Shown here one piece after another: positions 5,280 to 61,141 of a DNA stretch of 64,000 bases. The stretch comes from Odiellus spinosus. Its lineage: Eukaryota; Arthropoda; Arachnida; Opiliones; Phalangiidae. The stretch is from contig OY987239.1 of assembly GCA_963920705.1 (NCBI GenBank), positions 12,759,004 through 12,823,003 on the forward strand, given 5' to 3'. The translations under genes and the position numbers were made by a program. The notes beneath the pieces were generated by a model, which did no database searches, had not been told where the DNA came from, and was given only the letters and a program-made list of their open reading frames with translations. Within the stretch, counting starts at the first letter, position 1; each line of letters starts with the position of its first letter.

Positions 5280-6560
5280 TCAAAGTTAACCCGTTATTAA
5301 TCTAATTCGTGATTAATTAAATTTAATCTGATGTTAATCTAAATCACGATAAATCAAATTTAATCAGATATTAATCTAAATTGTGTTTAATCCAATGTTA
5401 ATCTAAATTGTGATTAATCAAATTTAATCCAAATCAAATTGTGATTAATCAAATTTAATCCAAATCAAATTGTGATTAATCTAATTTAATCCAAATCAAA
5501 TTGTGATTAATCTAATTTAATCCAAATCAAATTGTGATTAATCTAATTTAATCCAAATCAAATTGTGATTAATCTAATTTAATCCAAATCAAATTGTGAT
5601 TAATCAAATTTAATCCAAATCAAATTGTGATTAATCAAATTTAATCCAAATCAAATTGTGATTAATCAAATTTATTCCAAATCAAATTGTGATTAATCAA
5701 ATTTAATCCAAATCAAATTGTGATTAATCAAATTTAATCCAAATCAAATTGTGATTAATCTAATTTAATCCAAATCAAATTGTGATTAATCAAATTTAAT
5801 CCAAATCAAATTGTGATTAATCAAATTTAATCCAAATCAAATTGTGATTAATCAAATTTAATCCAAATCAAATTGTGATTAATCAAATTTAATCCAAATC
5901 AAATTGTGATTAATCAAATTTAATCCAAATCAAATTGTGATTAATCAAATTTAATCCAAATCAAATTGATTAATCTAATTTAATCCAAATCAAATTGATT
6001 AATCTAATTTAATCCAAATCAAATTGATTAATCTAATTTAATCCAAATCAAATTGTGATTAATCTAATTTAATCCAAATCAAATTGTGATTAATCTAATT
6101 TAATCCAAATCAAATTGTGATTAATCTAATTTAATCCAAATCAAATTGTGATTAATCTAATTTAATCCAAATCAAATTGATTAATCTAATTTAATCCAAA
6201 TCAAATTGATTAATCTAATTTAATCCAAATCAAATTGATTAATCTAATTTAATCCAAATCAAATTGATTAATCTAATTTAATCCAAATCAAATTGTGATT
6301 AATCTAATTTAATCCAAATCAAATTGTGATTAATCTAATTTAATCCAAATCAAATTGTGATTAATCTAATTTAATCCAAATCAAATTGTGATTAATCTAA
6401 TTTAATCCAGAGATTAATCCAAATCAATCGCGATTTATCAAATTTAATCTAGAGATTAATCCAAATCAATCATGATTAATCAAATTAAACCCAGAGATTA
6501 ATCCAAATCAATCGCGATTAATCAAATTTAATCTAAATCAATACTAATTTATAGAAAATA
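5280..6560. repeat. 31/29-bp minisatellite
   Basis: The unit contains GTGATTAATCTAATTTAATC followed by CAAATCAAATT, 31 bp in total. A 29-bp variant lacks the GT. There are about 35-40 units. Blocks of 29-bp units alternate with blocks of 31-bp units (for example 5960-6045 and 6170-6290), as expected from segmental duplication by unequal exchange. The edges degrade into the motif of the 3951-4530 array. Confidence 0.9.
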
Positions 6561-7494: not shown

Positions 7495-10400
7495 TTATCG
7501 AATTTGACTACAGTTTGGACCGACAGCTTTGTTATTATTACGCATCAAAGGTTTATGACTACGATAACTATCGACCGAATGCTGCCATTGCCAACAATTG
7601 CGACAAAAATACCTGAAACAATTGACGTCTCGACAAAAAATGGGTCCTTGCGTTTGTTGACAACTCGTACATAATGCGTCTTCGAGGTAAGGATCAACTT
7701 GAACCTTTAAACGATAGAAGAAAAAAAATTGTTTTAAAGCTGATAATTAACCGTAAAAATTATGTTTATTACCTTTTTAGTGAACCTTGGAGTTTTGATC
7801 TCGACAAAAGCGGCTTGAACCGCACGCATGTAACTTTTATTGTTGTTAAATGTTACGCGACCCGAACCTAAACGCGTTTAAAAGATATTTTTTATCAATT
7901 TTTTACGGTTGATAACAAATATTTAGCTTAAATCTGAAAGTAGGCTTAGCAAGGATATATAGAAGTAATTTTCTAACGATTCCTTACAGTTTAATAAACT
8001 TTTACAAATATTTGCCCAATATTTTTTAAACTGAAATTTGAAAGTGGCTTAGCAAGGATTAAAAGTTGTAATTGATATTGTTTATCGAGTCCTTAGAGTA
8101 AAAATGAAATTTGTTCATACTTCAGCTAAATTTACCAATTTAAATATGAAAGTAGGCTTAGCAAGGATCAAAAGACTGCAATGTATTATAAAAGTAATTA
8201 TCTATCGTTGTTTTTACATTTAATTGAATATTTAATGTATATATTATAATTTTATAGGAAATATTTTCCTAAAATTTTTAAATTAAATCTGAAAGTAGGC
8301 TTAGCAAGGATCAAAACTACATTAATGCCTGTTTAAAGTAATTTTCTAGCGGTTATTTATGATTATTAATAATTTCTAATGAGTAAAACTTGTCTAACAT
8401 TAATTTATAACTGAAATCTGAAAGTAGGCTTAGCAAGGATCAAAATAACTACATTAATTCCTATTGAAAAGTAATTTTCTATAAATTTTTACAGTTAATA
8501 TAACTTTTAATAAGAAAAACTTGTCTAACATTAATTTATAACTGAAATCTGAAAGTAGGCTTAGCAAGGATCAAAATATTTTTTGATCTCTAACCCTTTA
8601 AGATATCACTATGATTACAAAGTCTACTTACCAATAGGATACTTGTATTTATCGGTATCGATACCGGCGTAGACGACTCCGTTAAAAAGATCGTTCATAA
8701 TGCTCGCTAAGCCTTCGGCGTTCAACATGCCGTGTAAAGCTCCGACGAAGATGGTTTTTCCGGGATCCAACCTTTGGGAAGGGCAACGGACGTAGTTGCT
8801 ATCACTAATTACCCATGGAATTACTTGAACCTGCGTTTTAAATACGAGTTAGGCTTGGATCCATAACGGTAACGTCATCAACGATAACGAACCTCTTTGG
8901 AACGCATTCTTCTAGAAGATATTTTAAAGTACCAGTTTCCGCCATTACTAAAATCGTGGGTACAAGCTTGTAGAAGAGACTTGACGTGTTTCTCAGACTC
9001 AAATATAATGTAAACGTAACCAGCTATTTCGTATCAATCACGTGGGAAAATTAATTTCAAGTTTTAAGATATTCGTAAAGTTGATTAAGCGTTTACCTTT
9101 GGGTGGGTACGTTGGGCTACGAGCTTCGCGTCCGGGCCATTGAATTTTGATTGGTCCAAATGGGGCGAAAGCTTCTATTAAACCACTTTCCGTAATATCC
9201 CAAGGCACTCCTCCTAAAAACACTTTGCACGAAAAGCAAGGATTCTTGTGGGTTCTCGGAGGTAATTGACCGCTCCAAGTACAAGTTGCGTCGCAATACG
9301 CTAAGAAATCAATGAACTTTTAATATCTTGATGATAACGGGATATTAAAGCTTAGTTAACCACCCAGAAATTGTCCGAAGTTAAATCTGGTTCATTAGGT
9401 TAACAGAAAATAACTTGATGCAACTGCCAAGGCTTAAGGACGATTTCTTTGGCATAAAAACGTCAATGGAATAAGCAGACGATGTTTGGAATAGCTTCTA
9501 TCTGGTATTTGATCTCAAGATCAAATAAGCAGACGAAAGTAAGACTCGTATCTGCTATTTGACCTCAAGATCAAATAAGCAGACGACAGTAAGACTTCAA
9601 TCCGCTATTTGACCTCAAGATCAAATAAGCAGACGACAGTAAGACTTCTATCCGCTATTTGACCTCAAGATCAAATAAGCAGACGACAGTAACACTTCTA
9701 TCCGCTATTTGACCTCAAGATCAAATAAGCAGACGACAGTAAGACTTCTATCCGCTATTTGACCTCAAGAACAAATAAGCAGACGACAGTAAGACTTCAA
9801 TCCGCTATTTGACCAAGATCAAATAAGCAGACGACAGTAAGACTTCAATCCGCTATTTGACCTCAAGATCAAATAAGCAGACGACAGTAAGACTTCAATC
9901 CGCTATTTGACCAAGATCAAATAAGCAGACTACAGTAAGACTTCTATCCACTATTTGACCTCAAGATCAAATAAGCAGACGACAGTAAGACTTCAATCCG
10001 CTATTTGACCTCAAGATCAAATAAGCAGACGACAGTAAGACTTCAATCCGCTATTTGACCAAGATCAAATAAGCAGACTACAGTAAGACTTCTATCCACT
10101 ATTTGACCTCAAGATCAAATAAGCAGACGACAGTAAGACTTCAATCCGCTATTTGACCTCAAGATCAAATAAGCAGACGACAGTAAGACTTCTATCCGCT
10201 ATTTGACCTCAAGATCAAATAAGCAGACGACAGTAAGACTTCTATCCGCTATTTGACCTCAAGATCAAATAAGCAGACGACAGTAATCTTGATACAAGCG
10301 TAAATTTTGGGTGTTTAACTTATTAATTAGTATTTAATTGATGGATTTCTCACAGGCGGCGCTTCGGTAGAGTCTAGCAGCCCTTTCGATCTGATCTAAC

Positions 10401-13400
10401 TCGCTAACTTGACCGCTAAAAGTAGATCCCATTCCCGACCAACGTCTGTCTGAAAAAAATGGCGAAGATAGGAGAGGGGAGTCCATATCTGGTCGGCATT
10501 GGAAAGCGTTGCCGTAAAGGTTTGACTGTAGTCCCAAATTGTTATTAGAGAATGAAGATGGCGTTCCAGTACTGGCCAAATTAAGGCTATTCTGTAAAAT
10601 CATTAACCAAAGATTTAAATTAGTTTTTTTATCGATAAGAACTAACAAAGATCTATGTTTGCTAAGCCTAATTCAAGAAGCAGACGACTAATTCTCTCGG
10701 ATTGGATTTGAACCTCAAATTATTCAAGAATAAAAAGCAGACGATGCCAAGTTCAAATCTAGCTTGTATTTGGCTTTAAATAAATCAACATTACTTAAGC
10801 AGACGAAACTACTGTTACGCGGTTCCAAGATTAAGTTAATCCATCTTAATCAACTACTTTCATCACCTACAAAAGTCGTCTGCAACTTGATCTTGCGTTA
10901 AAATATAGATTAAATTACTTTGAATCGAAAAAATAGAGAAAATTGGGAAATAAAGAAGTTATTGCGGCCTTGCCTCTATGAAAATCATGTTAGGCTTAAA
11001 TTAGGCTTAAAAATTAAGCTTTTAAACTATTAACTGCATCGTAAAGGGAGAATGCAGAGAAAATTGACTTTTTCTCTTCATTCTCCCTTTATTTGAATAA
11101 CCTACGAGTCTTTGTTAAGCGTTTTATCCATAATTATCGCAACTTAATTAAAAACAGTAATTCTCGTTTACATTATCAACATTTAATGTTAAAATATATT
11201 TCGTTTTGCAGGAAAAAAATAGGCTTAAGGTTAAATAAGTTTCGTAATACGATTGTACTTTCCATTGAAAATTGTTTTATATTTTAAACTAGCCTCAATC
11301 TGCGGTTTATAAAAACTTTCCTCTTGCTTATTGAGGAAAGTTGGATAAAAAAATATATTTAAAAACCCGTTTACAGGAAAAAACCATTTTCCTTTAAGAG
11401 TTTCCGAGGGGATAACTGATATTAAAGTGGATATTTAATCATCGTACGACTACTTAAGAGTCCGTAAACTTGACACTTATATTTTCTAAGCCTTTTTAAC
11501 GCTTATTTAGAAAACATTTACGATAAATATTAAGCCCTATAATTTGTGTTCGTTTCCTTTAAAGAATTAAGTTCAGAAACTATTTTTTGGCAAGGCTTAG
11601 CGAATTAAAATAAGGTAGCAGACGACAAGACGTTTCTGAATAGATTTAGTTTAATTTCACTAAGCCTTTGCCAAATATCTTAATTCTTGAATAAAGTCTT
11701 AATTTACATTAAAATTTATCAATTAATACTGAATCTAGGCTTAACAAGGATCAGAGGGGACAAAATCTTACTGAAGGCAATATTTTACAAGAATGTTTAA
11801 TTCAATTTTCAAATTAGGCTTAAGAGGTATGATTGTTATTGGAGTTACCCCATGAATCCCAGCTAAGCCTAATCCTAATAATTTGTTATCAGTTGAAGGG
11901 AGAATTAAGGGTGAAAGATGTATTTAAATTAAACTAGGATTTATTTTTCTATAAGTGCTTAGCTAGGATTGAAGTGTATTGACAATTTCCACATAGCTAA
12001 GCCTAATCAACACCTTTGCTATAATTTATCGCTTACTTAAAGGAATTGAGGATGAAAAACTTAGTTTACTGACTTAAAATATGAAATATTTAACATCCTC
12101 AAAATCAGGCTTAGCTGGGATCAAAACGTTTAGGATTTAGAGGGTGCCATTTGATGATTTTAAACTTTATACCACAAAATTTCGTTATTTCTCTATGGAT
12201 CCCAGCTAAGCCTACTTTAAAAGTAATTAAAATTCAACTTACCATCAGATCTGACAAGCTATTGTCCGAAACACTACTGATTCCGCTGGTATCGGAGTCT
12301 GTCGGTGAGGAACTGCGACTGTCTCGGAGGCCATCGCAACCCATAAGCAGCGCTTGTTCGAGACTCGGGCTTGAGGTGAGGAAAGGTGGCGTACGACCGC
12401 GAATAGGCACCCGAGCGGGTCCCGTTGAGCTAGTAGGACTGTTTCTCGGGTTGTTAAAAGCCTTGGAACTAAATGGTGAGCCGCCGCTGCCAAAGCCATC
12501 GGTAAAGGAACGCATTGAGGAAGAATTGCCGCCAAGAATGTTGCCACTCTGCGAACTGAGGTTAAAACCGGGTGAAGATGCGCCGCTCGTGTTAGTATAT
12601 TGAGATAGTCCGCACGATGAAGGCGCCACTGTGTTAAAAAGTCCATTGCCGCCGTATCTCATGTTGGAGTTTTGGAATATATTTGGAAAACCTAAAAATC
12701 GGTTCACCAAAGCTTAAATATTCACACGTGTCACAAAACGCGTCATTTTAGCGTTTATGCAAAATCTTGCTAACCAGAAAAGGTGCCTGTGAAGTCCAAC
12801 CCTTCAGATTCGCTTAAAGACTGATGGACATCTACTTTAAAAGAAAATTGAGTAAAAATATAACTTTAAATTTTAATAAACTAAGTTTTAATTACACTTA
12901 ACTACACCAATTATTAAGTTATTTTCGTCTAGTATTAATTTTACCACTTGATATTTTAGACCACCATTTTTAAATGGCTATCAACAATATCCCTCAAATT
13001 CATTAGACCTTTGACCTACGTTTAAGCTGATTGGACTAAAAAAAGCTAGCAATTCCGTCGTCTGTTTTAACAAACATTTAACCCTAAAACTTCGTTTTGT
13101 TTTCTAATAGATAAGCTAGTTGTAATTCTTAAAATTCTAATTATAATAAATTAAGACTTACCTCTGTTTTCATTAGCCAAAGCGGATAAATCTAAACCAC
13201 TATTGTCCAACATTGTGGTCAAGTGTTGGTAAAATTCTTTGTTGCTAGAACTAAAAGGGTCACTGGAAGGTAGGAACTTGTTGTCCACCTCTGAACCAGA
13301 CGTATCAAACTGAAACTGTAATTAAAAAAATTATTGATGTAATAAAATATTAATTATATTCTGATCGAAAATCAGAAAATGGAATTTAAACCTTAAGATC

Positions 13401-29397: not shown

Positions 29398-30430
29398 AAT
29401 TTTAATTCGAATTTGTAATGAAATTTTAATTGTAATTTGTAATAAAATTTTAATTGTAATTTGTAATAAAATTTGTTAATTGTAATTTGTAATAAAATTT
29501 GATAATTATAATTTGTAATAAAATTTATTAATTATAATTAGTAATAAAATTTGTTAATTATAATTTGTAATAAAATTTATTAATTATAATTAGTAATAAA
29601 ATTTATTAATTATAATTTGTAATAAAATTTATTAATTATAATTTGTAATAAAATTTATTAATTATAATTTGTAATAAAATTTATTAATTATAATTTGTAA
29701 TAAAATTTATTAATTATAATTTGTAATAAAATTTATTAATTATAATTTGTAATAAAATTTATTAATTATAATTTGTAATAAAATTTATTAATTATAATTT
29801 GTAATAAAATTTATTAATTATAATTTGTAATAAAATTTATTAATTATAATTTGTAATAAAATTTATTAATTATAATTTGTAATAAAATTTATTAATTATA
29901 ATTTGTAATAAAATTTATTAATTATAATTTGTAATAAAATTTATTAATTATAATTTGTAATAAAATTTATTAATTATAATTTGTAATAAAATTTATTAAT
30001 TATAATTTGTAATAAAATTTTAATTATAATTAGTAATAAAATTTTAATTATAATTTGTAATAAAATTTAAATTATAATTAGAAATAAAATTTAAATTATA
30101 ATTAGTAATAAAATTTAAATTATAATTAGTAATAAAATTTAAATTATAATTAGTAATAAAATTTGAATTATAATTAGTAATAAAATTTTAATTATAATTA
30201 GTAATAAAATTTAAATTATAATTTGTAATAAAATTTAAATTATAATTAGAAATAAAATTTAAATTATAATTACTTAATTAGTAATAAAATTTAAATTATA
30301 ATTACTTAATTAGTAATAAAATTTAAATTATAATTACTTAATTAGTAATAAAATTTAAATTATAATTACTTAATTAGTAATAAAATTTTAATTATAATTA
30401 GTAATAAAATTTTAATTATAATTTGTAGTA
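29398..30430. repeat. 26-bp A/T-only minisatellite
   Basis: About 38 units built on AATTTGTAATAAAATTTATT plus AATTAT (26 bp). The centre (29640-30010) is nearly perfect and both flanks degrade, with a variant containing TACTTAATTAG at 30260-30390. That pattern is typical of homogenisation by unequal exchange. Confidence 0.95.
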
Positions 30431-33400
30431 TATTTATAATTGTTTATATGGTAATAAACCTTAATTAACATCCAAAAATAAACTTTAATATAAAAATTAA
30501 AGTTAATATAGTTATAATAATCGGCTTACGAAGCCTCCATAATGCTGTGATATTGGTTATTACGTAAAATGAATTTTAAAGCAACGATTTTAAAAAAACT
30601 TCGCTTAAAAACCAAACCCTTCAAACAGGTTAGATATTGGCGAATAAGCAGCCCGGGGTATACCAGTCCATAAACCTGCAGATTTTTAAAGAAAAACCCC
30701 GAAGACACTTTGCAGCAAGAAGCGGTACATACCCTGGAGATGCATCAAAGAGTTTAAAGTGCCAGTGACACAAGTTCATTTAAAATTAAAATTCCTAAAT
30801 TTTGGTCAGTAAAAATATCTAATTAATTTTGAGATTAATAAACAGTAATTATGAATTATTATTGTAAGGAATTGAATAATAATTAACGGCGATTAATTTG
30901 CGAGTGATATTGAATAAACCTGAAAAATTGGATCGGTATAATTTGGTAGAAATTAATTTTAAAATTGTTGGATTATTCTTGGGATAAATTTTAATTTAAA
31001 TTAATTGTAATAGTGTAATTATTTTGCAATTTAAATTTTTATTTGAGGTGATAAAAACTATGTCACCTAAACTTTAATATAAAAATACATTATTATATTT
31101 TTTTTTCCTTAAATCTAGTGGAAATAGCCACTTCCTGCGACTCTATTTCGTCGTATAAGGTATTTTTAACTTTAAACTATACTGAGGATAAAGGCAGGAC
31201 CAATCGCGATCAAAAACTCAATTTAAAAGCATTATCTTTGTTAGTTTCTAAAAGCGGAAAAATATTCTAATGAAAATTCTACTTCGAATTGATACTAAAA
31301 GTGTACCTTGTATCTCAATATTTCGTTCCCTATTAAGGTAACGTTTACCATAGCTTCGTACACGGTATCAAATCAAGATGAAATTAATTCTAAGTCTCTT
31401 TCAAAGGGGTTAAAAAAAATTTCGTTTTATGATTTAAAAAAAATTTCGGTAATCTTGTTCAAGAAATGTCTCTAGGCGATTCCAGTATTAAAGGGGCAGT
31501 GAATGAAAAATAACTTTGTATTAAATATAATTAATCTGATTAATTAATTTTAGATGTTAAGATTTAAATACTTAATTTATTCTTAAAATTATTTAATTAC
31601 GTATTGAAATTAAATAAATTTTTTTATCTGTTTTAGTTCATTATAAAATAACTCTGTTATACATTTTATAATCACTTTAAATAACTATTTAAAAAAGAAA
31701 ACAAGCGAAAAATTGTTCAACCAATTTTAAAATTTGGATTCAGGCATTCTACCCCCCTTTGTCGGTAAGAAGTTAATAAAATTAATCAAGATTCCAGCGC
31801 CATTTAGCGGAGAAATCTATTATTATCAAGTTCTTGAGGTGTTTATTATGTTAATTTCATAGAATTATGAGTAAAAATAAGCTACTGTTTTTTAAAGCGA
31901 AGCTACCACTGATATTTCACGAATTCTAAATTGAAATTGAGTGATATTTTCGGGTTGATCGTTAAAAAACGATTCAAAATATATATACATATCAAATAGA
32001 AACAAAATTACAGCGACAGGAAAACATACATTATTAAATAATCGAAAATTATATTTTAGAAATTGTAAAATAAACATTTCCCGCATACTACGTCATATTA
32101 TGGTCACGTGTTTCGATATTGTATAGAGAATACAGTTAATTCTATGCGTAATTATGGCACCTGCAGTGATAATGTCGCTTTCGCGCCGTCTTTCTCGTAA
32201 AAGTACTTGAATCCAAATCAATTTAACATCCTTTCGTATGAAAATTTTGATTAATTTCGTTCCGATTTAATTATATTATTTAACTTATTTAGAATTTCAA
32301 GTTATGTCACTTCATGATACGAAATTATTCCTTACACATCAGGCTCCCAATCTATATCAGTCATTCGTGGCAAAGTTTCATTCATAATTAAAAAATTTGG
32401 TGTTTTTTTGCACGAAGCCTTTACATTGCCTACATCTCGTTTGTTCCAGACTATCTGTGTTAAACAATTATTTTACACTACTTTTACTTCCCGTTAAAAT
32501 AACGCTTACAAGTTGTTAAAACTAGGTTAAAACTTACTAATAGTCTATAATAATAATTATAATAATAATTATTATATTACGCAATAACCAAATAAAAAAA
32601 ATGGTTCATATCTAAGTACTTACAAATACCATAAAAATTAAATTAAATTATGTTAATTAATTAGGAAGCTTGTTAAATTAATATTGCATCGAAATTAATC
32701 ACGTGATATTGAAGACATCACGTGGTTGTTTTTATATTCACGCGTGATGTTAATTTTAATTTTAATTTGCGAGGCAAACTTGGACCAATCATATTATTTT
32801 AGCTTTCAACAGCGCTTGTAATGAATTAAATTAATTTAAATACCAAAAAAAAGTGTCTAAAAATTAAATAAGATTAGTTTAAAATCGCGTGATATTATCC
32901 CTTTAAAAAAAATAAAAATAAAATAAAGATGCAAAATTGGCAGAAAATATTATTTAGTCTCTGTTCTAATCATTATGTTTTGGCACATGCAGGGTTAATA
33001 CTCTGTTTACACCTGCTGTTTCTATTCTGGAGAAACAACGGATATTGTACGTTGCAGCTTAACATATACCTTAACTATGCAACAGATTGCACCGTTAAAA
33101 CAGATACCCACATGTTAAAATTAAATGGAAAATTGAAGCTAAAAATGTAACAGCTTTTGAAATAATTTATTTTCGGACTCACCGGATGCTAAAAAAAATA
33201 TCCCATCATTTTTGAACAATTTTAACAAACTTTAAAAATTAATTTAAATACGAAAAACGTATCTAAAAATTCTGTCCAAGTTTCCCTTTAAATCAAAGGG
33301 TTAGTAGCACACGATTTTAAATTATATTTTATATTTTAAAGTGGATCAATCTACTCAAACTCTATTGATATTGCATCCATGTTTTCATTATTCTAAGCTG

Positions 33401-37546: not shown

Positions 37547-40500
37547 ATGATTCGAAGTTCAATTTTTACGTTTATAGCTATTCTGGGTATCATATTATTC
37601 GCTAACTACCAAGAATTTTCGGTACAAGCCTTGGAATTCGGATGCGCTAGCGATTACTGTGATAAATTTCAAAAAACTTGCGAAAATATTGATTTAGAAG
37701 ATGTAAAAGGACGAATTTTAAAAAACGCGACTAAATGTGGTTGTTGCGATGTAATGATGATTTCTTTGAGTGAGTAAAAGTTTAAATTATCTTATACTGA
37801 ACATTAAAGGGAGAATGAAATGATATTTTTTTAAATTTGTTTTACTAGTTGATTAATCCTGTTTAAATGATAAGAAAATGATAAAAAAACACTTGTTGTT
37901 GGGTTACATTATCCCTTTATCACTCTTAATTAATAAATAATAATTAACTTCTTCATTTTCCCTTTAAAAAACACTCAGTTTCGGTCAATTATAATTTGAT
38001 TAGTTAATAAATTAGCGTGAAACGATTCGTGGAATTTTACACTATAAGTAACGTAGCGCTATCTATTATAGGGTTTAAATTTAATAATATATTTACGTTT
38101 AATTAACACAAAATTTGGTTTTAGAGTGATTTAACAATTATTTTAACTTTTAAATTAAGTTATATTAATATTATAAGTTAGTGTTCAACATGTTTTGAGT
38201 TTGTGAACACTAGACGTCAGTATTTTATTGATTAAAAGATTTATTTTTGCATTGCGCGCGTTAATCAAACTAGTTTCCTGTCTGAATGCAGACTAACTGA
38301 GTTATATCTTGATTATAATACGAATACAGGCAGGTTTTAGCTTGGTCCTTCCTAAAATTAGCGAGGATTTATCTAAATTAGTAGTTTTCCACCTAAAATT
38401 AGTAGTTTTCAACCTAAAATTAGTAGTTTTCGATCTAAAATTTGTATTTTTCCACCTAAAATTCGTATTTTTCCACCTAAAATTCGTATTTTTCGACCTA
38501 CAATTAGTAATTTTCGACCTACAATTAGTAGTTTTCGACCTACAATTAGTAGTTTTCGACCTAAAATTAGTAGTTTTCGACCTAAAATTGGTAGTTTTCG
38601 ACCTAAAATTGGTAGTTTTCGACCTAAAATTGGTAGTTTTCGACCTAAAATTGGTAGTTTTCGACCTAAAATTGGTAGTTTTCGACCTAAAATTGGTAGT
38701 TTTCGACCTAAAATTGGTAGTTTTCGACCTAAAATTGGTAGTTTTCGACCTAAAATTGGTAGTTTTCGACCTAAAATTGGTAGTTTTCGACCTAAAATTG
38801 GTAGTTTTCGACCTAAAATTGGTAGTTTTCGACCTAAAATTGGTAGTTTTCGACCTAAAATTGGTAGTTTTCGACCTAAAATTGGTAGTTTTCGACCTAA
38901 AATTGGTAGTTTTCGACCTAAAATTGGTAGTTTTCGACCTAAAATTGGTAGTTTTCGACCTAAAATTGGTAGTTTTCGACCTAAAATTAGTAGTTTTCGA
39001 CCTAAAATTAGTAGTTTTCGACCTAAAATTAGTAGTTTTCGACCTAAAATTAGTAGTTTTCGACCTAAAATTATTAGTTTTCGACCTAAAATTAGTAGTT
39101 TTCGACCTAAAATTAATAGGTTTATTTTACAGAAAAGGGTGAAGTTTGCGCAATGACGGAAAACAAACCCATTCCAAGAAGCGAATGCGGTGATCAATTG
39201 ATGTGTATTAACGATTCACCAAACCCAAAATGCAAAGAAGGTACGTTACCATATTATTAAACATAATTTATAACAGTTAATGTCAGCCTCACTTTAAAAA
39301 ATAATATTATTAATTGATAATAAATTATATTTAAATTAAAAGCTACCACGAAATGCATGGCTGATTTGCTCGCCTTTGAAAGAGATATTGGAAAACAAGA
39401 ATTAACAACGGGTAAACCTAAACCAAAATGCAACGAAGTTGGACATTACGAAGCAGTGCAGTGTAAAGCGGGATTAATGTAAAATTAATTATCAATTTTA
39501 ATTTAAAATAACAGCTAAGTTAAATATTATCAGAGCTTATATAATAATTAAATTAATTTAATGTCTAATTCTTAATTTAACCAAAACTAATTAATCTCTT
39601 CTAAGGTGCAAATGCGTTGATAAAGATGGTAATAGGATATTCGGAGAAGCTCCATATTCCAAAGATCTCAACATGAATTGTCGTAAGTAAATGTTTTTAG
39701 AAAATAAGTATATCATTACTATCGGCATATATTTTTATTACCAAAAGTCTTTAAGTTCATTCAATAAAAGTAAACAACGCCCCGTAGCTTATTAATATCA
39801 GAAGCCGATGAAACCCTCCTTTGAAGTCTATTACTCCCGGGTCTTGTCTACCCCTCTCTGTATGGGATAGTTTCAAAAAGCGCGATTCGTACGCCTCCTA
39901 ACGGTAGATATTTTCGGAGCGGGAGTTCGTCCACCGAATATCTCTAGCAGCCTCGGAGTTCGTCAAAAAAACGTCGTCGTTTGTGGAGAGAGAGAATTTC
40001 CAATTTTCCGTAGACAGGGGGGTATGAAGTAGGACCCCTCCGATCTCGGAAAATTGGGAATTTTACCCATACAGAGAGGCGCGCTATATCGAACATTAGA
40101 GTAGTTGACTTCAAAGGAGGGTTTCATCGGCTTCTGCTATCAGTAAAGGCCCATCAATTATAACTACCCAAAAAAAGTCATCACCCCTGTCTGAGTAATT
40201 TGCAGTCATAGACTTTTGGTATAATTCTCAATAGAATGCTCGAGAGATATTGATCGGTATGTCAAAACCGGATTGTTGGACGAAGACAGCGATTATTTCA
40301 TGAGATGCTTGGCAAATGGTGATTACGACGGACCCCAATGTACAAGTACTCAATGTTACTGTATTGGAAAAAATGGCGAGCTCAGAAGTCAACAAGTACC
40401 TAGACTAAATGGAACGGCAATCCTGCCTTGTTGTAAGTTATGGTTTAATTAACGCTAATTACGATTTTGTAATTAAAATGAGAGGAATTTCAAAAATAGG

Positions 40501-42821: not shown

Positions 42822-44840
42822 TTAAGAGATCTGTTCTTCCTTGACGTGTACGGTTTCGGGTAGCTCGACTTTGACTTTCAGGCACATTGGTACAGAAACG
42901 TAAAAAAGTTTATGAACTACTTCGGGTATTCGCAACTTCTCGATGTCACTGAAAGATTCGTCGCGTTGTTCGCATACGCGAGTCTGAACTTCCACGGATG
43001 TTCCTTCGCTCGAGACATCGCCATCAGGAACGTCATCATTTTCATCATGACGATTGATATCATTCGATAGGGTTGACGAATGAATTCGGTCACGATGGAT
43101 TTTCAAATTACTTTTTTGATTGCAAGAATATTCGCAAGCGTCGCGTTTAAAAGATTTGATCTTCGAATGAATAGTTTTATGAGGCTTCAAATTGTATTTG
43201 TTAAGCGTTGAGAATTCGCATTCGTCGCATTTGAAGAGTTTGTTCTTGGAATGAATCAATTTATGGCTTTTCAAATTGCTTTGATGGTAGCAAGAATATT
43301 CGCAGGCGTCGCATTTAAAAGGTTTGTAGCCCGAATGAATCGCTTTATGACGCTCCAAATGTTGTTTACGGTGTGTTGAAAAGTCGCATATCGAGTCTTC
43401 AGTCTTCGAATCAATTAATTCGTGAGCATTCAAATATCTTTTCTGCCCTAGTGAATAGTCGCATTTAAAAGGTTTGATATTCGAATGAGTACCTTTATGA
43501 AAGTTCAAAGATTGTATATATTTGGTTGAGAAATCGCATTCGTCGCATTTGAAGCGTTTTCTCTCCTCGTGAATCACATTGTGACCGAATAAACTATCTT
43601 TACGATGGGTGGAAAATTCGCATTTGTCGCATTTAAAGCTTTTCAATTCCGAGTGAGTCAGTTGGTGAGACTTCAAAGAATATTTACGATGCGTGGAATA
43701 ATCGCATTTGTCGCATTTAAAGCTTTTCAATTCCGAGTGCGTCAGTTGGTGAGACTTCAAAGAATATTTACGACGCGTGGAATAATCGCAATTGTCGCAT
43801 TTAAAGCTCTTCAATTCCGAGTGCGTTAGTTGGTGAGACTTTAAACTATCTTTACGATGGGTTGAAAAGTCGCATTTGTCGCATTTAAAGCTTTTCAATT
43901 CAGAGTGAGTTATTTCGTGGGACTTTAAATATGCTTTACGATGTGTGGAATAATCGCATTTGTCGCATTTAAAGCTTTTTAATTCCGAGTGCGTCAGTTG
44001 GTGAAACTTCAAAGTATCTTTACGACGCGTGGAATAATCGCATTTGTCGCATTTAAAGTTTTTCAATTCCGAGTGCGTCAGTTGGTGAGACTTCAAATGA
44101 TACTTATAACGCGTGGAATAATCGCATTTGTCGCATTTAAAGCTTATTAATTCCGAGTGCGTCAGTTGGTGAGACTTCAAATGATACTTATTACGCGTGG
44201 AATAATCGCATTTGTCGCATTTAAAGCTTATTAATTCCGAGTGCGTCAGTTGGTGAGACTTCAAATGATACTTATTACGCGTGGAATAATCGCATTTGTC
44301 GCATTTAAAGCTTATTAATTCCGAGTGCGTCAGTTGGTGAGACTTCAAATGATACTTATTACGCGTGGAATAATCGCATTTGTCGCATTTAAAGCTTATT
44401 AATTCCGAGTGCGTCAGTTGGTGAGACTTCAAATGATACTTATAACGCGTGGAATAATCGCATTTGTCGCATTTAAAGCTTATTAATTCCGAGTGCGTCA
44501 GTTGGTGAGACTTCAAATGATACTTATTACGCGTGGAATAATCGCATTTGTCGCATTTAAAGCTTATTAATTCCGAGTGCGTCAGTTGGTGAGACTTCAA
44601 ATGATACTTATTACGCGTGGAATAATCGCATTTGTCGCATTTGTACGGATCGCGTTGAAACGGAGCGCTGTTAGAATTGCTCGATGGACGAAGTTGGTTT
44701 TCGGTGTCCCGAGCGGAACTTGTTGCAACCAGAACTCCTTCGATTTCATCTTCGGGTTCTTTTTTGACGTTCGCGACGGGTTCGCCAATTTCTAACTTGA
44801 CTTTGACGCATTCTTCGGGCTTGTATTTACAATTCATCAT
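42822..44840 (-). CDS. single-exon C2H2 zinc-finger protein, 19 finger units
   Basis: A 672-aa ORF starts at ATG ATG (44840). Residues ~1-65 are acidic and lysine-rich with VKxE motifs (VKKEPED); a similar short motif (HVKEEQIS) ends the protein. Between them are 19 28-residue C2H2 units of the FKCDKCDYSTxxKxxLKSHQ type joined by THSEL linkers, suggesting a nuclear DNA-binding factor. Units 1-7 (and partly 8-12) are nearly identical at the DNA level and differ mainly at one helix position (RNKYHL or RYKYHL). Three C-terminal units are damaged: unit 15 (FKCDYSLGQ) lacks the second Cys and has ASP for the last His, unit 16 lacks the first Cys, and unit 19 has FKRD for FKCD. There is no ZAD or KRAB domain. 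No orthologue is recognised. A 5' exon cannot be excluded. Confidence 0.88.
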   Translation of the reverse strand: MMNCKYKPEECVKVKLEIGEPVANVKKEPEDEIEGVLVATSSARDTENQLRPSSNSNSAPFQRDPYKCDKCDYSTRNKYHLKSHQLTHSELISFKCDKCDYSTRNKYHLKSHQLTHSELISFKCDKCDYSTRYKYHLKSHQLTHSELISFKCDKCDYSTRNKYHLKSHQLTHSELISFKCDKCDYSTRNKYHLKSHQLTHSELISFKCDKCDYSTRNKYHLKSHQLTHSELISFKCDKCDYSTRYKYHLKSHQLTHSELKNFKCDKCDYSTRRKDTLKFHQLTHSELKSFKCDKCDYSTHRKAYLKSHEITHSELKSFKCDKCDFSTHRKDSLKSHQLTHSELKSFKCDNCDYSTRRKYSLKSHQLTHSELKSFKCDKCDYSTHRKYSLKSHQLTHSELKSFKCDKCEFSTHRKDSLFGHNVIHEERKRFKCDECDFSTKYIQSLNFHKGTHSNIKPFKCDYSLGQKRYLNAHELIDSKTEDSICDFSTHRKQHLERHKAIHSGYKPFKCDACEYSCYHQSNLKSHKLIHSKNKLFKCDECEFSTLNKYNLKPHKTIHSKIKSFKRDACEYSCNQKSNLKIHRDRIHSSTLSNDINRHDENDDVPDGDVSSEGTSVEVQTRVCEQRDESFSDIEKLRIPEVVHKLFYVSVPMCLKVKVELPETVHVKEEQIS

Positions 44841-48656: not shown

Positions 48657-48701
48657 AACAATAAGAAACTTTATCTTCAAAAGATAAAACACGTGATCAA
48701 G

Positions 48702-51700
48702 ATGAATATCAACGCGGTTTATGTCGAGGGCATTATTAGAACTGTCCGTAATCGTACGAACACGTCCCTCAATTACTTAGGCGACAGCGATTTTGGACGA
48801 GGAGTTAAAAGTTTGCAACGAAAAGCCAAGGAGAAGATAGTACGTTTCCCATCGGAAATGGTAACCGCGTTAAATCGTGGTAATCTATCGGAAGATTATA
48901 GCCACATATACCGCAGAAAAACCAAATGGGAACTGTTTCTTCTAAGCGGGGCTGTTTGTGGCATCGAATTTTGTTATGCGGCAGAAACGGCTTTTGTAAG
49001 TCCAATTTTATTACGATTAGGAGTGAAGATAGAGTTCCTTAGTATGATCTGGTGTTTAAGTCCATTAATTGGACTATTCTTAGCGCCAATCTTAGGGTCT
49101 TTAAGCGATAGTTGCCGGATGAGATTAGGTAGAAGAAGACCATTCATAATCGCCCTTTCAGTTGGGATTTTAATTGGATTAATCTTTGTACCAAATGGTA
49201 AAGATATTGGACTCGCCTTAGGCGACAAAGACTTGATTACCAGTCATAACTCGACCACATTCAACAACACCACGAGTGAAATGAACGAAGCCAATGAAAC
49301 TGTGGAACGAAGACATCCTTGGGGTATTGTTTTCACGGTACTCGGTACTGTATTATTGGATTTTTGTTCGGACGCCTGTCAATCACCTTCCAGAACATAT
49401 TTATTGGACGTGACTGTACCTGAAGATCACGTGGTTGGTTTAAGCGTCTTTACTATAATGGCTGGATTAGGAGGTAGTGTCGGTTACGCTATGGGTGGTA
49501 TTGATTGGGAATCTACCTTTATCGGTACCTTATTGGGTTCCCACGAACGCGCGGTTTTTACCATCGTAACTATACTGTTCCTACTATGTTTATCAGCCAC
49601 AATTACAAGTTTCCGGGAAGTACCCTTAGACGTACTTTGCAATTTAACCGGAAGTGGAATGGAAATCAAAGCCAAAGAAAATAAACCATCTACTAAAAAA
49701 TACGAACAGTTCGCTAACGAAGATGACACCATCGATGGGACAATTGGATCTGGAGATCAGAGCCTCGAATATGACAAAAATACTTATGGAACTGTATCTG
49801 ACCCATCCAGTTCGAACGAACATGGTGGAAAGGAATTAAACCTCGTAAATGGACAACCTCACGGTGAAGACCTTAACATGACTGAATTGGGAAGTCCTCA
49901 AGAAATCAACGACTCAAGTTCGATACAAACCCACGCCCCATCGTTAAAAACTTATTTGAAATCGATAATATTCGTTCCGAAATCGATAAAAATTTTGTGT
50001 CTGACGAATTTATTCTGTTGGATGTCATTGGTCAGTTATTCGTTGTATTTCACCGATTTTGTGGGAGAATGCGTTTTCGGTGGTGACCCCAGTGCCCCGG
50101 AATCTGACCCCAAATACGCCCTTTATCAACAAGGGGTCAGATTTGGATGTTGGGGAATGTCTTTGTACTCATTGTCATGTTCGGGATATTCTTACATCAT
50201 TGAGGCGTTGGTTAAGAAAGTGGGTAAGTATAACTTGATTCTTATATTTATATCTACGTTAATTAACGCGAGGATACGTATCCATCTCAACAGAAAGATG
50301 GATCCATGTGGTTTTATCTAGGCATGCCATCATGGATCGGCATATCATTATAAAATTTGCCATATTTGTTGAGGCTCTTAAAAACTACAATTTTTGTAGT
50401 TTAATAATAAAAATATTAAGGTTTGCCAAAGTTTTGAGTCATAATTTGACCTTGGTCAAGCAATCTATGGTCCGAACTATGGTCAAAGTGTGGTCAAAGT
50501 ATGGCCAAAGTGTGGTCAAATTATCGTCTAAGTGTGGCCAAACTATGGCCAAATAATGGTCAATCTATGGTAAAACTATGGTAAAACTATGGTAAAAGTA
50601 TGGTCAAACTATGGTCTAAGTATGGTCAAATTATGGCCAAACTATGGCCAAACTACGGTCAAATTATAGTCAAACTATGGCCAAATTATGGTCAAATTAT
50701 GGCCAAAGTGTGGTCAAAGTATGGGAAAACTATGGCCAAATTATCGTCTAAGTGTGGCCAAACTATGGCCAAATAATGGTCAATCTATGGTAAAACTATG
50801 GTAAAAGTATGGTCAAACTATGGTCTAAGTATGGTCAAATTAAGGCCAAACTATGGCCAAATTATGGCCAAACTACGGTCAAATTATGGTCAAACTATGG
50901 TCTAAGTATGGTCAAATTATGGCCAAACTATGGCAAAATTATGGCCAAACTACGGTCAAATTATGGTCAAACTATGGCCAAATTATGGTCAAATTATGGC
51001 CAAAGTATGGCCAAAGTGTGGCCAAAGTGTGGTCAAACTAGGGCCAAACTAAATTTTGTTGTTTCTCTCTCCATATTATAACTTTCATTGTTCTATGGTT
51101 TATGTAATACAGACATAAATTGGAGTTAATAGAGATGTTTCCGTATGTTAACAGGTGCCAAGCGTGTTTTTATCGGAGGTCAATTAGTCTACACGGTTGG
51201 AATGATACTGATGGCAATTACCAGACACAAAGTAAGCGTTATACTACTATCGCCGACAGCTGGAGTCATGTACGCCACTCTTTTCACTATGCCTTATTTG
51301 CTGGTAGCGCACTATCATGCCACCGAAACAGTTAAGTATATTCTCTCAATGTTAATTTCAAGTAAGCCTTATACCAACTGCCATAAAATCTTAATCTTTG
51401 GATTTTCACATTGTGAAAAATATTTAAAATGGCCAACATACGAAAATAAAATTATATCATAAGTCTGAAGCAGGTTTTAGCATTTTTTAAAACAAATACC
51501 AATGGGAGATGTTTCGATATTCGGTAATTTAACTTAAATTATTAGTTTAAAAGCTAATTAATCATTGATTTGATTAATTATATTATCAAAACACCGTAGA
51601 AAAGAGTAAAATTACTCCAATTTATGGGAAATCTTAAAAATAAGTTGATAAATGCTTCAATGACCAACGTTAGTTCTAGGCCTATTTGCTCCCTAGGGTT

Positions 51701-53465: not shown

Positions 53466-54293
53466 AATTACTCGAAAATTCTTCAAATTACTCGAAAATT
53501 CTTCAAATTACTCGAAAATTCTTCAAATTACTCGAAAATTCTTCAAATTACTCGAAAATTCTTCAAATTACTCGAAAATTCTTCAAATTACTCGAAAATT
53601 CTTCAAATTACTCGAAAATTCTTCAAATTACTCGAAAATTCTTCAAATTACTCGAAAATTCTTCAAATTACTCGAAAATTCTTCAAATTACTCGAAAATT
53701 CTTCAAATTACTCGAAAATTCTTCAAATTACTCGAAAATTCTTCAAATTACTCGAAAATTCTTCAAATTACTCGAAAATTCTTCAAATTACTCGAAAATT
53801 CTTCAAATTACTCGAAAATTCTTCAAATTACTCGAAAATTCTTCAAATTACTCGAAAATTCTTCAAATTACTCGAAAATTCTTCAAATTACTCGAAAATT
53901 CTTCAAATTACTCGAAAATTCTTCAAATTACTCGAAAATTCTTCAAATTACTCGAAAATTCTTCAAATTACTCGAAAATTCTTCAAATTACTCGAAAATT
54001 CTTCAAATTACTCGAAAATTCTTCAAATTACTCGAAAATTCTTCAAATTACTCGAAAATTCTTCAAATTACTCGAAAATTCTTCAAATTACTCGAAAATT
54101 CTTCAAATTACTCGAAAATTCTTCAAATTACTCGAAAATTCTTCAAATTACTCGAAAATTCTTCAAATTACTCGAAAATTCTTCAAATTACTCGAAAATT
54201 CTTCAAATTACTCGAAAATTCTTCAAATTACTCGAAAATTCTTCAAATTACTCGAAAATTCTTCAAATTACTCGAAAATTCTTCAAATTACTC
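53466..54293. repeat. near-perfect 20-bp minisatellite (~41 units)
   Basis: The 20-bp unit ATTCTTCAAATTACTCGAAA is repeated about 41 times without any substitution or indel that I can see until the last unit (CTCAAATAAT). Because 20 is not a multiple of 3, every plus-strand frame cycles through the same 20-residue peptide and stays open, giving ORFs of up to 298 codons that are artefacts. Each unit contains GAAAATTC, a minimal nGAAnnTTCn heat-shock-element-like pair. Confidence 0.97.
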
Positions 54294-54798
54294 AAATAAT
54301 TGATATTACTCGAAAATTTCAAGTTAAATTATGTTATAATTAAAGAACGCAAGCAGAGTATCTCTTTAAATATAAATATAGTTAATGAGAATGGGGCGTA
54401 GTAGTTAATATAATAATTAAAACATTTTCTCGCGCAGTTTACGACAATTTACGGATCCGTAAATATTTTATATCGAAATAGTTTAGTGTAGAATTTATTG
54501 ACGCAATTATTGTTTTAGCATTGGCAATTTTTGTGGCATTATTCAAAAAATATTGTGCTGTCTTTTACGATCAATTTTGATCGCGTTGATCGCAAATGTT
54601 TTTCTCAAATCTTCCGAGGCATTTTATCGTAGTTTTTTTTTAACTTTCCTTTTCAAAGAATTTTGTTATATTTGACACACAAACACACACCAAAGTTTCT
54701 TTCCATCGTTGCGAACTCAACTGTTCACGCGTTAAGGAAAGACCGTAATCTTAAATGTTCGCGCAAGTTGCGTTTAAGAAGGATGTTTTTGCCCCATT

Positions 54799-54859: not shown

Positions 54860-57618
54860 TCAGTGCCATTTGGCTTTTTGCGCAAAAATATCGGCGCGAA
54901 GATTCTGCGCAAAACAGATCCCTAAGATCTGAATAAACCAGTTGAAAAAAGTTTATCAAAAAGGGATTTTTTTCAGAGATTTTACATTAAAAATACTAAT
55001 AATAATTTAATTATGATAGAAAGTAATATGATTTTGTCTGGTTATGGTCAACGTCGTCTGCTTACTTAATATTTATGATCTTTTTGATTGGTTTCTTAAA
55101 ACGTTCAATGAGTATTCAATGAGTACTCGTTTTTGAGCAAATTAAAATGGAGATGAACTAATTTTAATTGACTAAATATGATCGAGTACTCGTTTTTATC
55201 GATTAAATATGATCGAGTACTCGTTTTTATCAACTAAATATGATCGAGTACTCGTTTTTATCAACTAAATATGATAGAGTACTCGTTTTATCAACTAAAT
55301 ATGATAGAGTACTCGTTTTATCAACTAAATATGATAGAGTACTCGTTTTTATCAACTAAATATGATAGAGTACTCGTTTTTACTGTCTAAATATGATCGA
55401 ATTTTTCGTTTTTAACGAATAAATATGATCGAATTTTTCGTTTTTAACGAATAAATATGATCGAATTTTTCGTTTTTAACGAATAAATATGATCGAGTAC
55501 TCGTTTTAATGCACTAATTATGATCGAGTATTCGTTTTAATTGACTAACTACCATCAAGTTTGTTTTTATCGACTAAATATGATCGAGTACTCGTTTCCA
55601 TCGACTAAATATGATCGAGTACTCGTTTCCATCGACTAAATATGATAGAGTACTCGTTTTTATGCACTAATTATGATCGGGTACTCGTTTTTATGCACTA
55701 ATTATGATCGGGTACTCGTTTTTATGAACTAATTATGATCGGGTACTCGTTTCTATCGACTAAATACGATAGAGTAGGTTTTAAATCCATTAAATATGAT
55801 GAAGTACTTGTTTGAAATGACAAGTTTTAATCGACTAATTATGATATTTTAATGGTTAGGGAACGTCTCACCTGTACCATGGTGATGATGAGAAAAAAGC
55901 CCGTCATAAAGAGCAGATTTCGTTCGACCCAATCTTGCCCAGATTGTAAACAGCCTCTTTCGTAAATTAACCCGGACCTTTTAGGTCCCTACATTTAATT
56001 AATCAACGTTTAATTTAAGTAAATTAATCTTATTTCAACGATTATGTTAATGAATCAATAAAATTCCCAGAGAATAGAGGCCGCCACAATTTTTACGAAC
56101 GTACAACCAATCCTCAAACCTTAAATTCACGATTTTCGTTAAGCCTAACAACCTTTTCGCTAAGCCTAATCCTAGATTTTCCTTAAGCCTACAGATTTAA
56201 TCGTGAATTTCAGTAGTTTTTTAAGAAAAGAGAAGAAAAAAATGTGAAGTAAGTACCTGTAGAACTGCCACCCCAACAGCGACTCCCGCAACCGGAACCA
56301 GATTAGCTTCAATCCACTCTTCACCCGCCCGAAGACATCCCTTTTCATAAATTATCGCAGATTTGTCCCCCGCCTAAATGCGGCAACAATTTTTAAAACC
56401 CCCGTGTTAGTTAAATCATTAAGGATCATGGTTAGATTAGATTGACATGCGTAGTTAAATTCATTCTTACGTAATCGGCTTTACGAACGTCGTACCCGCA
56501 TTGTTTATTTTTAATAATCTCCTATAAATTAAAATTTATGGATTCGTTAAGCCTAATTTTTATTTTGTTAAGCCTTAATTGTTTAAAATATGATAAATCG
56601 AAGACTTACATCTGGTTGCGGCCTGCAACACGAAAATGGCACTCCGCAAGCTTCGCGACTACCTACTTCCCAACTGGAACAGTTAAAATAAATGTTCATA
56701 TCCCAATCTTTGGGACCTTCAATCCCGCAACACTCCAGCTTATTCAAATATTTAATAATAATCAACGATTGTTACGTAACTTAGCAAATAATCGTATCGA
56801 CTTACCCACTGTTCTTGTATCCAATCTATTAAATTTTGTCTATCGGGATCGTCGCGATAATATACTATAAAGGCTTGAAAACCCCCCGTAGCTTGCGCTT
56901 TAATCCAATCTTTAAAAATAAACCCTAATATTCCCGCCGTCATCTCTAGAAGCAATAAAATAGCTAGAAATATCGCGTAAGACGCTAAAAAGCAGGTATT
57001 TTCTCTAAGAGCTCCTATACATCCCGTAAAACCGATGATGAGAGTTACGATGCCTACTAAAACTAATATAAACGCCGGATCCAAAGCGATGTTGGTTAGT
57101 CTCGTTAGGTTACTAAAAATATCCTTCTCCGTCCATGCCCAAAATCCAACGACAAAGATTCCGAGTCCGACCAACTGAAATGATAATAATTAAACTCCCT
57201 TTAAATTTTCGCTTCATACATCACGAAATTCTAACAATGTAACAAACCAGCTACGCCCATTAACCATTGTAAAGTGAAAGTTTGATAAGGTAGAACGTTC
57301 TTGTCGTACGATTTAGACCAGAAAGTTCAGAAACGAAATCAAAAAGTTATTTTTAAGTAAAAATTCAAACGATTTAGTTAAAAATAAACTATGAGAAATC
57401 ATAAGCGAAATTCGCTTTCACCATTTCACATCATTTTTAACAGGGCAAGGCCATTTACATTATCATTTCCAGATTTTTTCGGAATTAGGAATTCATTGTT
57501 TATGAAAAGAAGCCGAGGCTTAAAGGCTTACCCAAAATATAACGTTAAATCCGAAAATTAAGTACTTCAAACAACAACTAATTTCACTACTATCTCTTCT
57601 AGATTTACGGCTAGGCAT
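54860..57618 (-). CDS. TspanC8-type tetraspanin (Tspan5/14/17/33 group)
   Basis: Exons join in phase 0: 57618-57532, 57174-56806, 56738-56610, 56521-56471, then one of two alternative exons (56373-56257 or 55988-55872), and 54928-54860 (TGA). They give 273 aa with either one, about the family length. The N-terminus is [22 protein letters not shown]1 continues FGFNVIFW.., followed by [13 protein letters not shown]2-3 carry GCIGALREN and ELTAGVL-like [15 protein letters not shown]. The large loop has [22 protein letters not shown] and GC: eight cysteines, the C8 signature. TM4 ends [13 protein letters not shown]. Family members bind the metalloprotease ADAM10 and control its exit to the surface and hence Notch cleavage; that role here is inference from the family. 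Confidence 0.95.
55130..55830. repeat. 31-bp minisatellite with CGAGTACTCG palindrome
   Basis: About 22 units of TATGATCGAGTACTCGTTTT plus TATCGACTAAA, each centred on the 10-bp palindrome CGAGTACTCG. Variants change the palindrome (AGAGTACTCG, CGAATTTTTCG). It lies in the tetraspanin intron between alternative exon B and the last exon. Confidence 0.9.
55872..55988 (-). CDS. tetraspanin alternative exon B (39 codons)
   Basis: Same length and phase as exon [20 protein letters not shown] then [14 protein letters not shown]. The acceptor is TGTAG|GGACC and the donor CAG|GTGAGA. It keeps Y, the GC cysteine, W, E and NL but has a different, bulkier TM4. The pyrimidine tract before this acceptor is weak. 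Confidence 0.85.
56257..56373 (-). CDS. tetraspanin alternative exon A (39 codons)
   Basis: Encodes the end of the large loop and TM4: [19 protein letters not shown] then [14 protein letters not shown]. The acceptor is TTTAG|GCG and the donor CAG|GTACTT, phase 0 on both sides. It is homologous along its length to exon B, 268 bp further downstream in the transcript. Confidence 0.88.
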
Positions 57619-60371: not shown

Positions 60372-61141
60372 ATTATTTGCAATAAAATTTGGGTAAAGTT
60401 TGCAAATAAATTTGGGTAAAGTTTACAAATAAATTTGGGTAAAGTTTGCAAATAAATTTGGGTAAAGTTTGCAAATAAATTTGGGTAAAGTTTGCAAATA
60501 AATTTGGGTAAAGTTTGCAAATAAATTTGGGTAAAGTTTGCAAATAAATTTGGGTAAAGTTTGCAAATAAATTTGGGTAAAGTTTGCAAAATAAATTTGG
60601 GTAAAGTTTGCTAATAAATTTGGGTAAAGTTTGCAAATAAATTTGGGTAAAGTTTGCAAATAAATTTGGGTAAAGTTTGCAATACAATTTGGGTAAAGTT
60701 TGCAGTATAATTTGGGTAAAGTTTGCAAATAAATTTGGGTAAAGTTTACAAATAAATTTGGGTAAAGTTTGCAAATAAATTTGGGTAAAGTTTGCAAATA
60801 AATTTGGGTAAAGTTTGCAAATAAATTTGGGTAAAGTTTGCAAATAAATTTGGGTAAAGTTTGCAAATAAATTTGGGTAAAGTTTACAAATAAATTTGGG
60901 TAAAGTTTGCAAATAAATTTGGGTAAAGTTTGCAAATAAATTTGGGTAAAGTTTGCAAATAAATTTGGGTAAAGTTTGCAATACAATTTGGGTAAAGTTT
61001 GCAATACAATTTGGGTAAAGTTTACAAATAAATTTGGGTAAAGTTTGCAAATAAATTTGGGTAAAGTTTGCAATACAATTTGGGTAAAGTTTGCAAATAA
61101 ATTTGGGTAAAGTTTGCAAATAAATTTGGGTAAAGTTTGCA
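60372..61141. repeat. 23-bp minisatellite
   Basis: About 33 units of GCAAATAAATTTGGGTAAAG plus TTT. Variants include GCAATACAATTTGGG and TTTACAAATAAA, which themselves recur at regular distances. The minus-strand frames (QTLPKFICKLYPNLFANFTQ period) are open only because of the repeat. Confidence 0.95.

What the first reader, a model, noticed from the sequence alone, without database searches (positions are those of the whole stretch)
55872..56373. Tandem, equal-length alternative exons for the last ectodomain cysteine and TM4 of a TspanC8 tetraspanin
Exon A (56373-56257) and exon B (55988-55872) are both 117 bp, both phase 0/0 and homologous (YExGCL, W, E, NL conserved), yet the TM4 helix is almost completely different. 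Only one fits a normal four-helix tetraspanin, which predicts mutually exclusive splicing and two membrane-anchor variants of a probable ADAM10 partner. Inclusion of both would stay in frame and add a fifth helix. I know of no description of this for TspanC8 genes, but I cannot search.
Basis: partly seen in the sequence, partly recalled or inferred. Interest (0 to 1): 0.8.

Follow-up and report, generated by a model that had tools for sequence, protein, structure and literature searches.

The report
Two alternative exons in a tetraspanin
A single animal gene for a membrane protein that probably escorts a cell-surface protease carries two related, interchangeable versions of one exon, so it could make two proteins that differ near and inside the membrane; this is a known kind of gene arrangement in a gene where I found no clear description of it.

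Summary
The minus strand carries a tetraspanin gene of seven coding exons (57618-54860). Exons A (56373-56257) and B (55988-55872) are both 117 nt, phase 0/0, AG/GT-flanked and open. They are homologous: 14 of 39 residues, 62 of 117 bases, tblastn E 8e-7, and have diverged as coding sequence: dN 0.54, dS 3.2 (near saturation); 85 of 20,000 simulated unselected copies were open and as protein-similar. Each single-exon product is a 273-residue full-length tetraspanin with eight loop Cys and four hydrophobic segments; inclusion of both gives five segments, skipping gives three. Mutually exclusive use is the best reading, but no RNA, orthologue or paralogue could be examined, so splicing and exclusivity are inferred. 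Corrections: the exon encodes only the outer half of TM4, the rest lies in the shared last exon; the greater divergence of the TM part is not significant (p 0.083). No enforcing RNA structure was found. New member of a known kind (tandem homologous alternative exons); the CD82/KAI1 variant lacking exon 7 affects the same protein region. Interest 0.42.

The parts
57532..57618 (-). exon 1, start codon into TM1 (87 nt, phase 0)
   Evidence: ATG, GT donor
56806..57174 (-). exon 2, rest of TM1, TM2, TM3, start of large loop (369 nt)
   Evidence: tblastn
56610..56738 (-). exon 3, CCG motif to SCC of the large loop (129 nt)
56471..56521 (-). exon 4, 51 nt, seventh loop Cys
56257..56373 (-). alternative exon A, 117 nt: eighth loop Cys, helix E, outer half of TM4 (small residues); donor CAG/gtactt, unmatched to U1 at +4 and +5
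55989..56256 (-). 268-nt intron between A and B, with a 12-nt perfect inverted repeat (12 of 1000 shuffles have one as long) around three copies of a motif that is dispersed in the window
55872..55988 (-). alternative exon B, 117 nt: eighth loop Cys, helix E, outer half of TM4 (bulky residues); donor CAG/gtgaga, best U1 match of the six donors
54929..55871 (-). 943-nt intron after B holding a 31-nt tandem array (55162-55813)
54860..54928 (-). shared last coding exon: inner half of TM4, cytoplasmic tail, stop

Best explanation
A TspanC8-type tetraspanin gene in which the exon for the end of the large extracellular loop (eighth Cys, helix E) and the outer half of TM4 was tandemly duplicated long ago; both copies stayed under protein constraint and are used one at a time, giving two 273-residue isoforms that keep the Cys pattern, the rest of both loops and the cytoplasmic tail but differ in helix E and in the outer-leaflet half of TM4 (A small residues, B bulky). 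Most likely this tunes how the tetraspanin packs, holds its large loop, or is sorted, while its partner (probably ADAM10/Kuzbanian) can still bind. Shown: gene structure, homology, coding-type divergence, four-segment architecture of each single-exon product. Inferred: splicing of both, exclusivity, partner, functional difference.
For: Exact length and phase match with splice sites. Homology E 8e-7. Identities at codon positions 1, 2, 3 are 19, 29 and 14 of 39 (chi-square p 0.0025); NG86 dN 0.54, dS 3.2; of 20,000 simulated unselected decays of A to 62 of 117 identity, 2208 were open and 85 open with at least 14 identities. Both isoforms match PF00335 over residues 17-260 at 179.5 and 174.1 bits, cut-off 32.1. 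Loop Cys at 155, 156, 172, 183, 189, 190, 203, 225 in both; four hydrophobic segments for A or B, five for A+B, three for neither. Both exons end in Q (251), a site where the printed alignments show Q in TSPAN15 and TSPAN7 and E in CD53, though M in CD9. The C-terminal 78 residues with A or with B score 22.2 and 21.3 bits to TSPAN15. Donor of B has the best U1 match of six.
Against: No transcript, orthologue or paralogue seen. Neither frame nor intron size enforces exclusivity. The selector-like 21-mer upstream of both exons is weak (23 of 2000 shuffles) and the best docking site lies inside the null; intron fold z -1.27. dS is near saturation, so dN/dS is only indicative; the constraint test averages over time and cannot show that both exons are in use today. 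With the B end, one search found 2 chains (both tetraspanins), with the A end one search found 5 (four tetraspanins, one unrelated), so B is somewhat further from solved relatives.
Confidence: 0.72

Rival explanations
1. Both exons are functional but not strictly exclusive: some transcripts include both, making a longer protein with a repeated loop end and a weak fifth hydrophobic segment.
For: Both lengths are multiples of three, the 268-nt intron is long enough to be spliced, A+B keeps the frame and still matches PF00335 (182.2 bits, two stretches).
Against: A+B carries a second copy of the eighth loop Cys, cuts TM4 after its outer half and gives five hydrophobic segments, which would put the tail on the other side of the membrane if all insert.
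Confidence: 0.12
2. One exon (B, or less likely A) is a relic duplicate that is no longer spliced, or only at noise level.
For: The acceptor of B is pyrimidine-poor (7 of 15 at -3 to -17), although that of constitutive exon 3 is the same; no RNA evidence for either exon; B matches fewer solved tetraspanins than A.
Against: B is open, keeps Cys, W, E, NL and Q, and its donor has the best U1 match of the six (8 of 9 positions; -11.1 kcal/mol); only 85 of 20,000 simulated neutral decays are as open and as similar.
Confidence: 0.13
3. The pair is an assembly or gene-conversion oddity, for instance a fragment of another tetraspanin gene inserted here.
For: The window is rich in tandem arrays (53 overlapping rows), a setting for local duplication.
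Against: A and B differ at 55 of 117 bases, so they are no recent assembly duplication; no further tetraspanin exon with E below 3.8 in the window. Flanks: upstream introns share only a weak 21-mer; downstream flanks were compared only within, which shows an 11-nt match.
Confidence: 0.03

Closest known systems
Homologous mutually exclusive exons from tandem exon duplication (Kassiopeia, PMC3923563, abstract and passages; PMC7954323, passages)
   Same: Adjacent homologous exons of equal length, same phase and compatible splice sites; such exons are reported as enriched in membrane functions (PMC7954323 passages).
   Different: The gene is a TspanC8-type tetraspanin and half a transmembrane helix is swapped; exclusive use is not shown here; no selector/docking RNA structure found.
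KAI1-SP, splice variant of the tetraspanin CD82 lacking exon 7 (PMC5814219, passages)
   Same: Alternative splicing of the tetraspanin exon for the distal large loop and proximal TM4 (28 residues there); the authors attribute altered partner crosstalk to its loss.
   Different: KAI1-SP drops the exon; here a homologous substitute exists and the four-segment architecture is kept. CD82 is not a TspanC8 (recalled).
Drosophila Tsp26A, listed among genes alternatively spliced in eMIC-minus fly brains (PMC8797185, one passage)
   Same: A fly TspanC8 gene (membership recalled) with regulated splicing in brain; the authors list it under Notch signalling.
   Different: The passage does not say which exon, and the supplementary table was not available. 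It could be the same event, which would make this known.

Membership tests
Tetraspanin (PF00335) | profile match over full length | tested here: met
   179.5 (A) and 174.1 (B) bits, profile 1-221 of 225
Tetraspanin (PF00335) | four transmembrane segments | tested here: met
   hydropathy only: four segments for the A and the B isoform
TspanC8 | eight Cys in the large extracellular loop | tested here: met
   positions; definition from a PMC6036176 passage
TspanC8 | closest relatives are TSPAN5/10/14/15/17/33 | tested here: inconclusive
   best solved match TSPAN15 (133.5 bits), next TSPAN7 (98.9), which is not a TspanC8; only solved structures were compared and no tree was built
TspanC8 | binds and traffics ADAM10 | not testable with these tools
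   needs co-immunoprecipitation
Homologous mutually exclusive exons | adjacent, homologous, similar length, same phase, compatible splice sites | tested here: met
Homologous mutually exclusive exons | exactly one included in the mature mRNA | not testable with these tools
Exclusive splicing by competing RNA structures | selector copies before each exon and one docking site | tested here: inconclusive
   17 of 21 match upstream of A and of B, reached in 23 of 2000 shuffles; best joint docking -14.2 kcal/mol, while at least 7 of 30 shuffled genes reach or beat it

The most novel reading that the evidence does not exclude
One TspanC8 gene makes two protease-escort isoforms by swapping, as a unit, helix E plus the outer-leaflet half of TM4, the joint between the large loop and the membrane, so that substrate choice or sorting of ADAM10/Kuzbanian is set by splicing and not only by using different TspanC8 genes.
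Probability: 0.35. Interest if true: 0.65.

Novelty: new member of a known kind. Interest (0 to 1): 0.42.

Why it matters
TspanC8 proteins are proposed to form distinct ADAM10 'scissors' through six mammalian genes (PMC6036176, passages). A homologous exon swap confined to 39 residues would be a natural experiment on which part of a tetraspanin sets sorting or substrate choice, and a case in which half a transmembrane helix is an exchangeable splicing unit.

Tried and rejected
Orthologue search: viral contigs (by protein, by degenerate pattern) and genome contigs (by protein, by pattern) gave no relative. One search returned six stretches (L001-L006) in records titled as bacterial; I took them for chance matches by title and did not read them. 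The window's own assembly did not complete (below). Structure prediction was not attempted: the spliced isoforms are not read letter for letter from the DNA, which the tool requires.

RNA-structure mechanism: a 21-nt similarity upstream of A (1 nt from the exon) and of B (86 nt from it) was tested as a selector pair; weak (23 of 2000 shuffles), with no docking site beyond the null. A 12-nt inverted repeat in the intron between A and B (12 of 1000 shuffles; whole-intron fold z -1.27) encloses copies of TAGGCTTAR, which I first considered as a splicing signal of this gene and dropped because the motif is dispersed in the window (31 found, 1.29 expected). Helical-face test of the TM4 volume change: no face preferred (permutation p 0.90).

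Literature: ten searches, seen as titles and openings of abstracts; one search listed 20 of 118 papers, one search listed 11 of 12, one search found none. No title or abstract opening in these listings names a homologous exon pair in a TspanC8 gene. Supplements, subscription papers and genome annotations (FlyBase, RefSeq) were out of reach, so this is no proof of absence. Papers opened by passages and not used further: PMC12644648, PMC5100048, PMC13045381. A second look in PMC8797185 for the exon type found no match.

Full report
What is there. The minus strand of the window carries a tetraspanin gene of seven coding exons: 57618-57532, 57174-56806, 56738-56610, 56521-56471, A 56373-56257, B 55988-55872 and 54928-54860, every one a multiple of three, so all introns are phase 0; all have GT-AG ends. 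Intron lengths in order are 357, 67, 88, 97, 268 and 943 nt. A-only and B-only mRNAs encode 273 residues each, A+B 312 and neither 234 (the lengths printed count the stop). The exon borders are read from the sequence and the protein match; no transcript was seen.

The pair. A and B share 14 of 39 residues and 62 of 117 bases. With the A isoform as query, tblastn on the window finds B at E 8e-7 and no further hit below E 3.8. The protein match is more than neutral decay would leave: codon positions 1, 2 and 3 keep 19, 29 and 14 of 39 bases, NG86 gives dN 0.54 and dS 3.2 (near saturation, so a rough guide), and of 20,000 simulated unselected copies at the same nucleotide identity 2208 were open and 85 both open and as similar. 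This null starts from A; one from B was not run. I infer an old duplication, with both copies constrained for a good part of their history.

What the swap changes. Residues 213-251 are exchanged: the stretch after the seventh loop Cys, the eighth Cys (225), helix E (named from recalled CD81 anatomy) and the outer half of TM4 up to Q251. The inner half of TM4 and the tail come from the shared last exon. This corrects the finding, which speaks of the TM4 helix as a whole. In the exon-coded TM part 2 of 13 residues are identical and 7 of 13 BLOSUM-positive; against 12 of 26 identical in the ectodomain part the difference is not significant (p 0.083). Both keep Q at the end, where the printed alignments show Q in TSPAN15 and TSPAN7, E in CD53 and M in CD9. 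Against solved tetraspanins A and B fit about equally to TSPAN15 (22.2 and 21.3 bits; 11 and 12 of 32 identities), A better to TSPAN7 (12 against 7 of 32), and about equally to CD53 (6 and 5 of 28). Calling A the canonical exon thus rests on weak evidence and recall.

Why one at a time. A or B gives four hydrophobic segments and eight loop Cys; both gives five segments (the extra one weak, 1.80) and a second copy of the eighth Cys; neither gives three segments. So only single inclusion makes an ordinary tetraspanin. That is an argument from the product. I found no device that enforces it: frame is kept in every combination, the 268-nt intron is not short, all donors are GT, the selector-like 21-mer is weak (23 of 2000 shuffles), the best joint docking site (-14.2 kcal/mol) is reached by at least 7 of 30 shuffled genes, and the intron fold is ordinary (z -1.27; 19 of 200 shuffles as good). 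The donors differ: CAG/gtactt of A lacks the +4 and +5 matches (-7.1 kcal/mol with U1), CAG/gtgaga of B is the best of six (-11.1). Two constitutive donors have poorer U1 energies than A (-4.9, -4.6), so this is a hint of regulation at most.

Family. PF00335 over nearly the full profile for both isoforms; eight loop Cys meets the TspanC8 definition in PMC6036176 (passage); the best solved relative is TSPAN15. ADAM10 binding is inferred from family. That the organism is an insect was not tested.

What is known. Tandem homologous alternative exons are a described kind (PMC3923563 abstract and passages; PMC7954323 passages), reported as enriched in membrane functions. In CD82/KAI1 the variant lacking exon 7 loses 28 residues of the same region, and the authors attribute altered partner crosstalk to it (PMC5814219 passages). 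Drosophila Tsp26A is listed among genes alternatively spliced in eMIC-minus brains (PMC8797185, one passage), the exon not named; it may be the same event. I file the finding as a new member of a known kind and leave open that it is already annotated in flies.

Limits. No RNA data, no orthologue and no access to the window's own assembly (ten unanswered calls).

Noticed in passing
window 5400-6409, 29402-30441, 38375-39114, 53466-54318, 55162-55813, 60376-61141: Long minisatellite arrays with units of 20 to 31 nt; five of these six are 94 to 98% uniform, the one in this gene's last intron 86%; another starts about 540 nt past its stop.
   Followed up: no
31 places in the window, e.g. 56139-56191, 10991-11871, 8296-8564: Short motif TAGGCTTAR is dispersed on both strands, 31 copies against 1.29 expected, not confined to one array.
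   Followed up: partly
18 to 19 of 128 bins of 500 bp across the window: 10-mers such as ATGAAACCCT and CCTTTGAAGT recur, which suggests a dispersed repeat, perhaps a mobile element.
   Followed up: no
window 42822-44840, minus strand: 672-residue C2H2 zinc-finger ORF with an 84-nt array of 12.3 units 93% alike (43609-44642), suggesting recent expansion or homogenisation.
   Followed up: partly
window 48693-50321, plus strand: Long ORF of a Major Facilitator type transporter (PF07690, 49.8 bits), SLC45-like by recall.
   Followed up: partly
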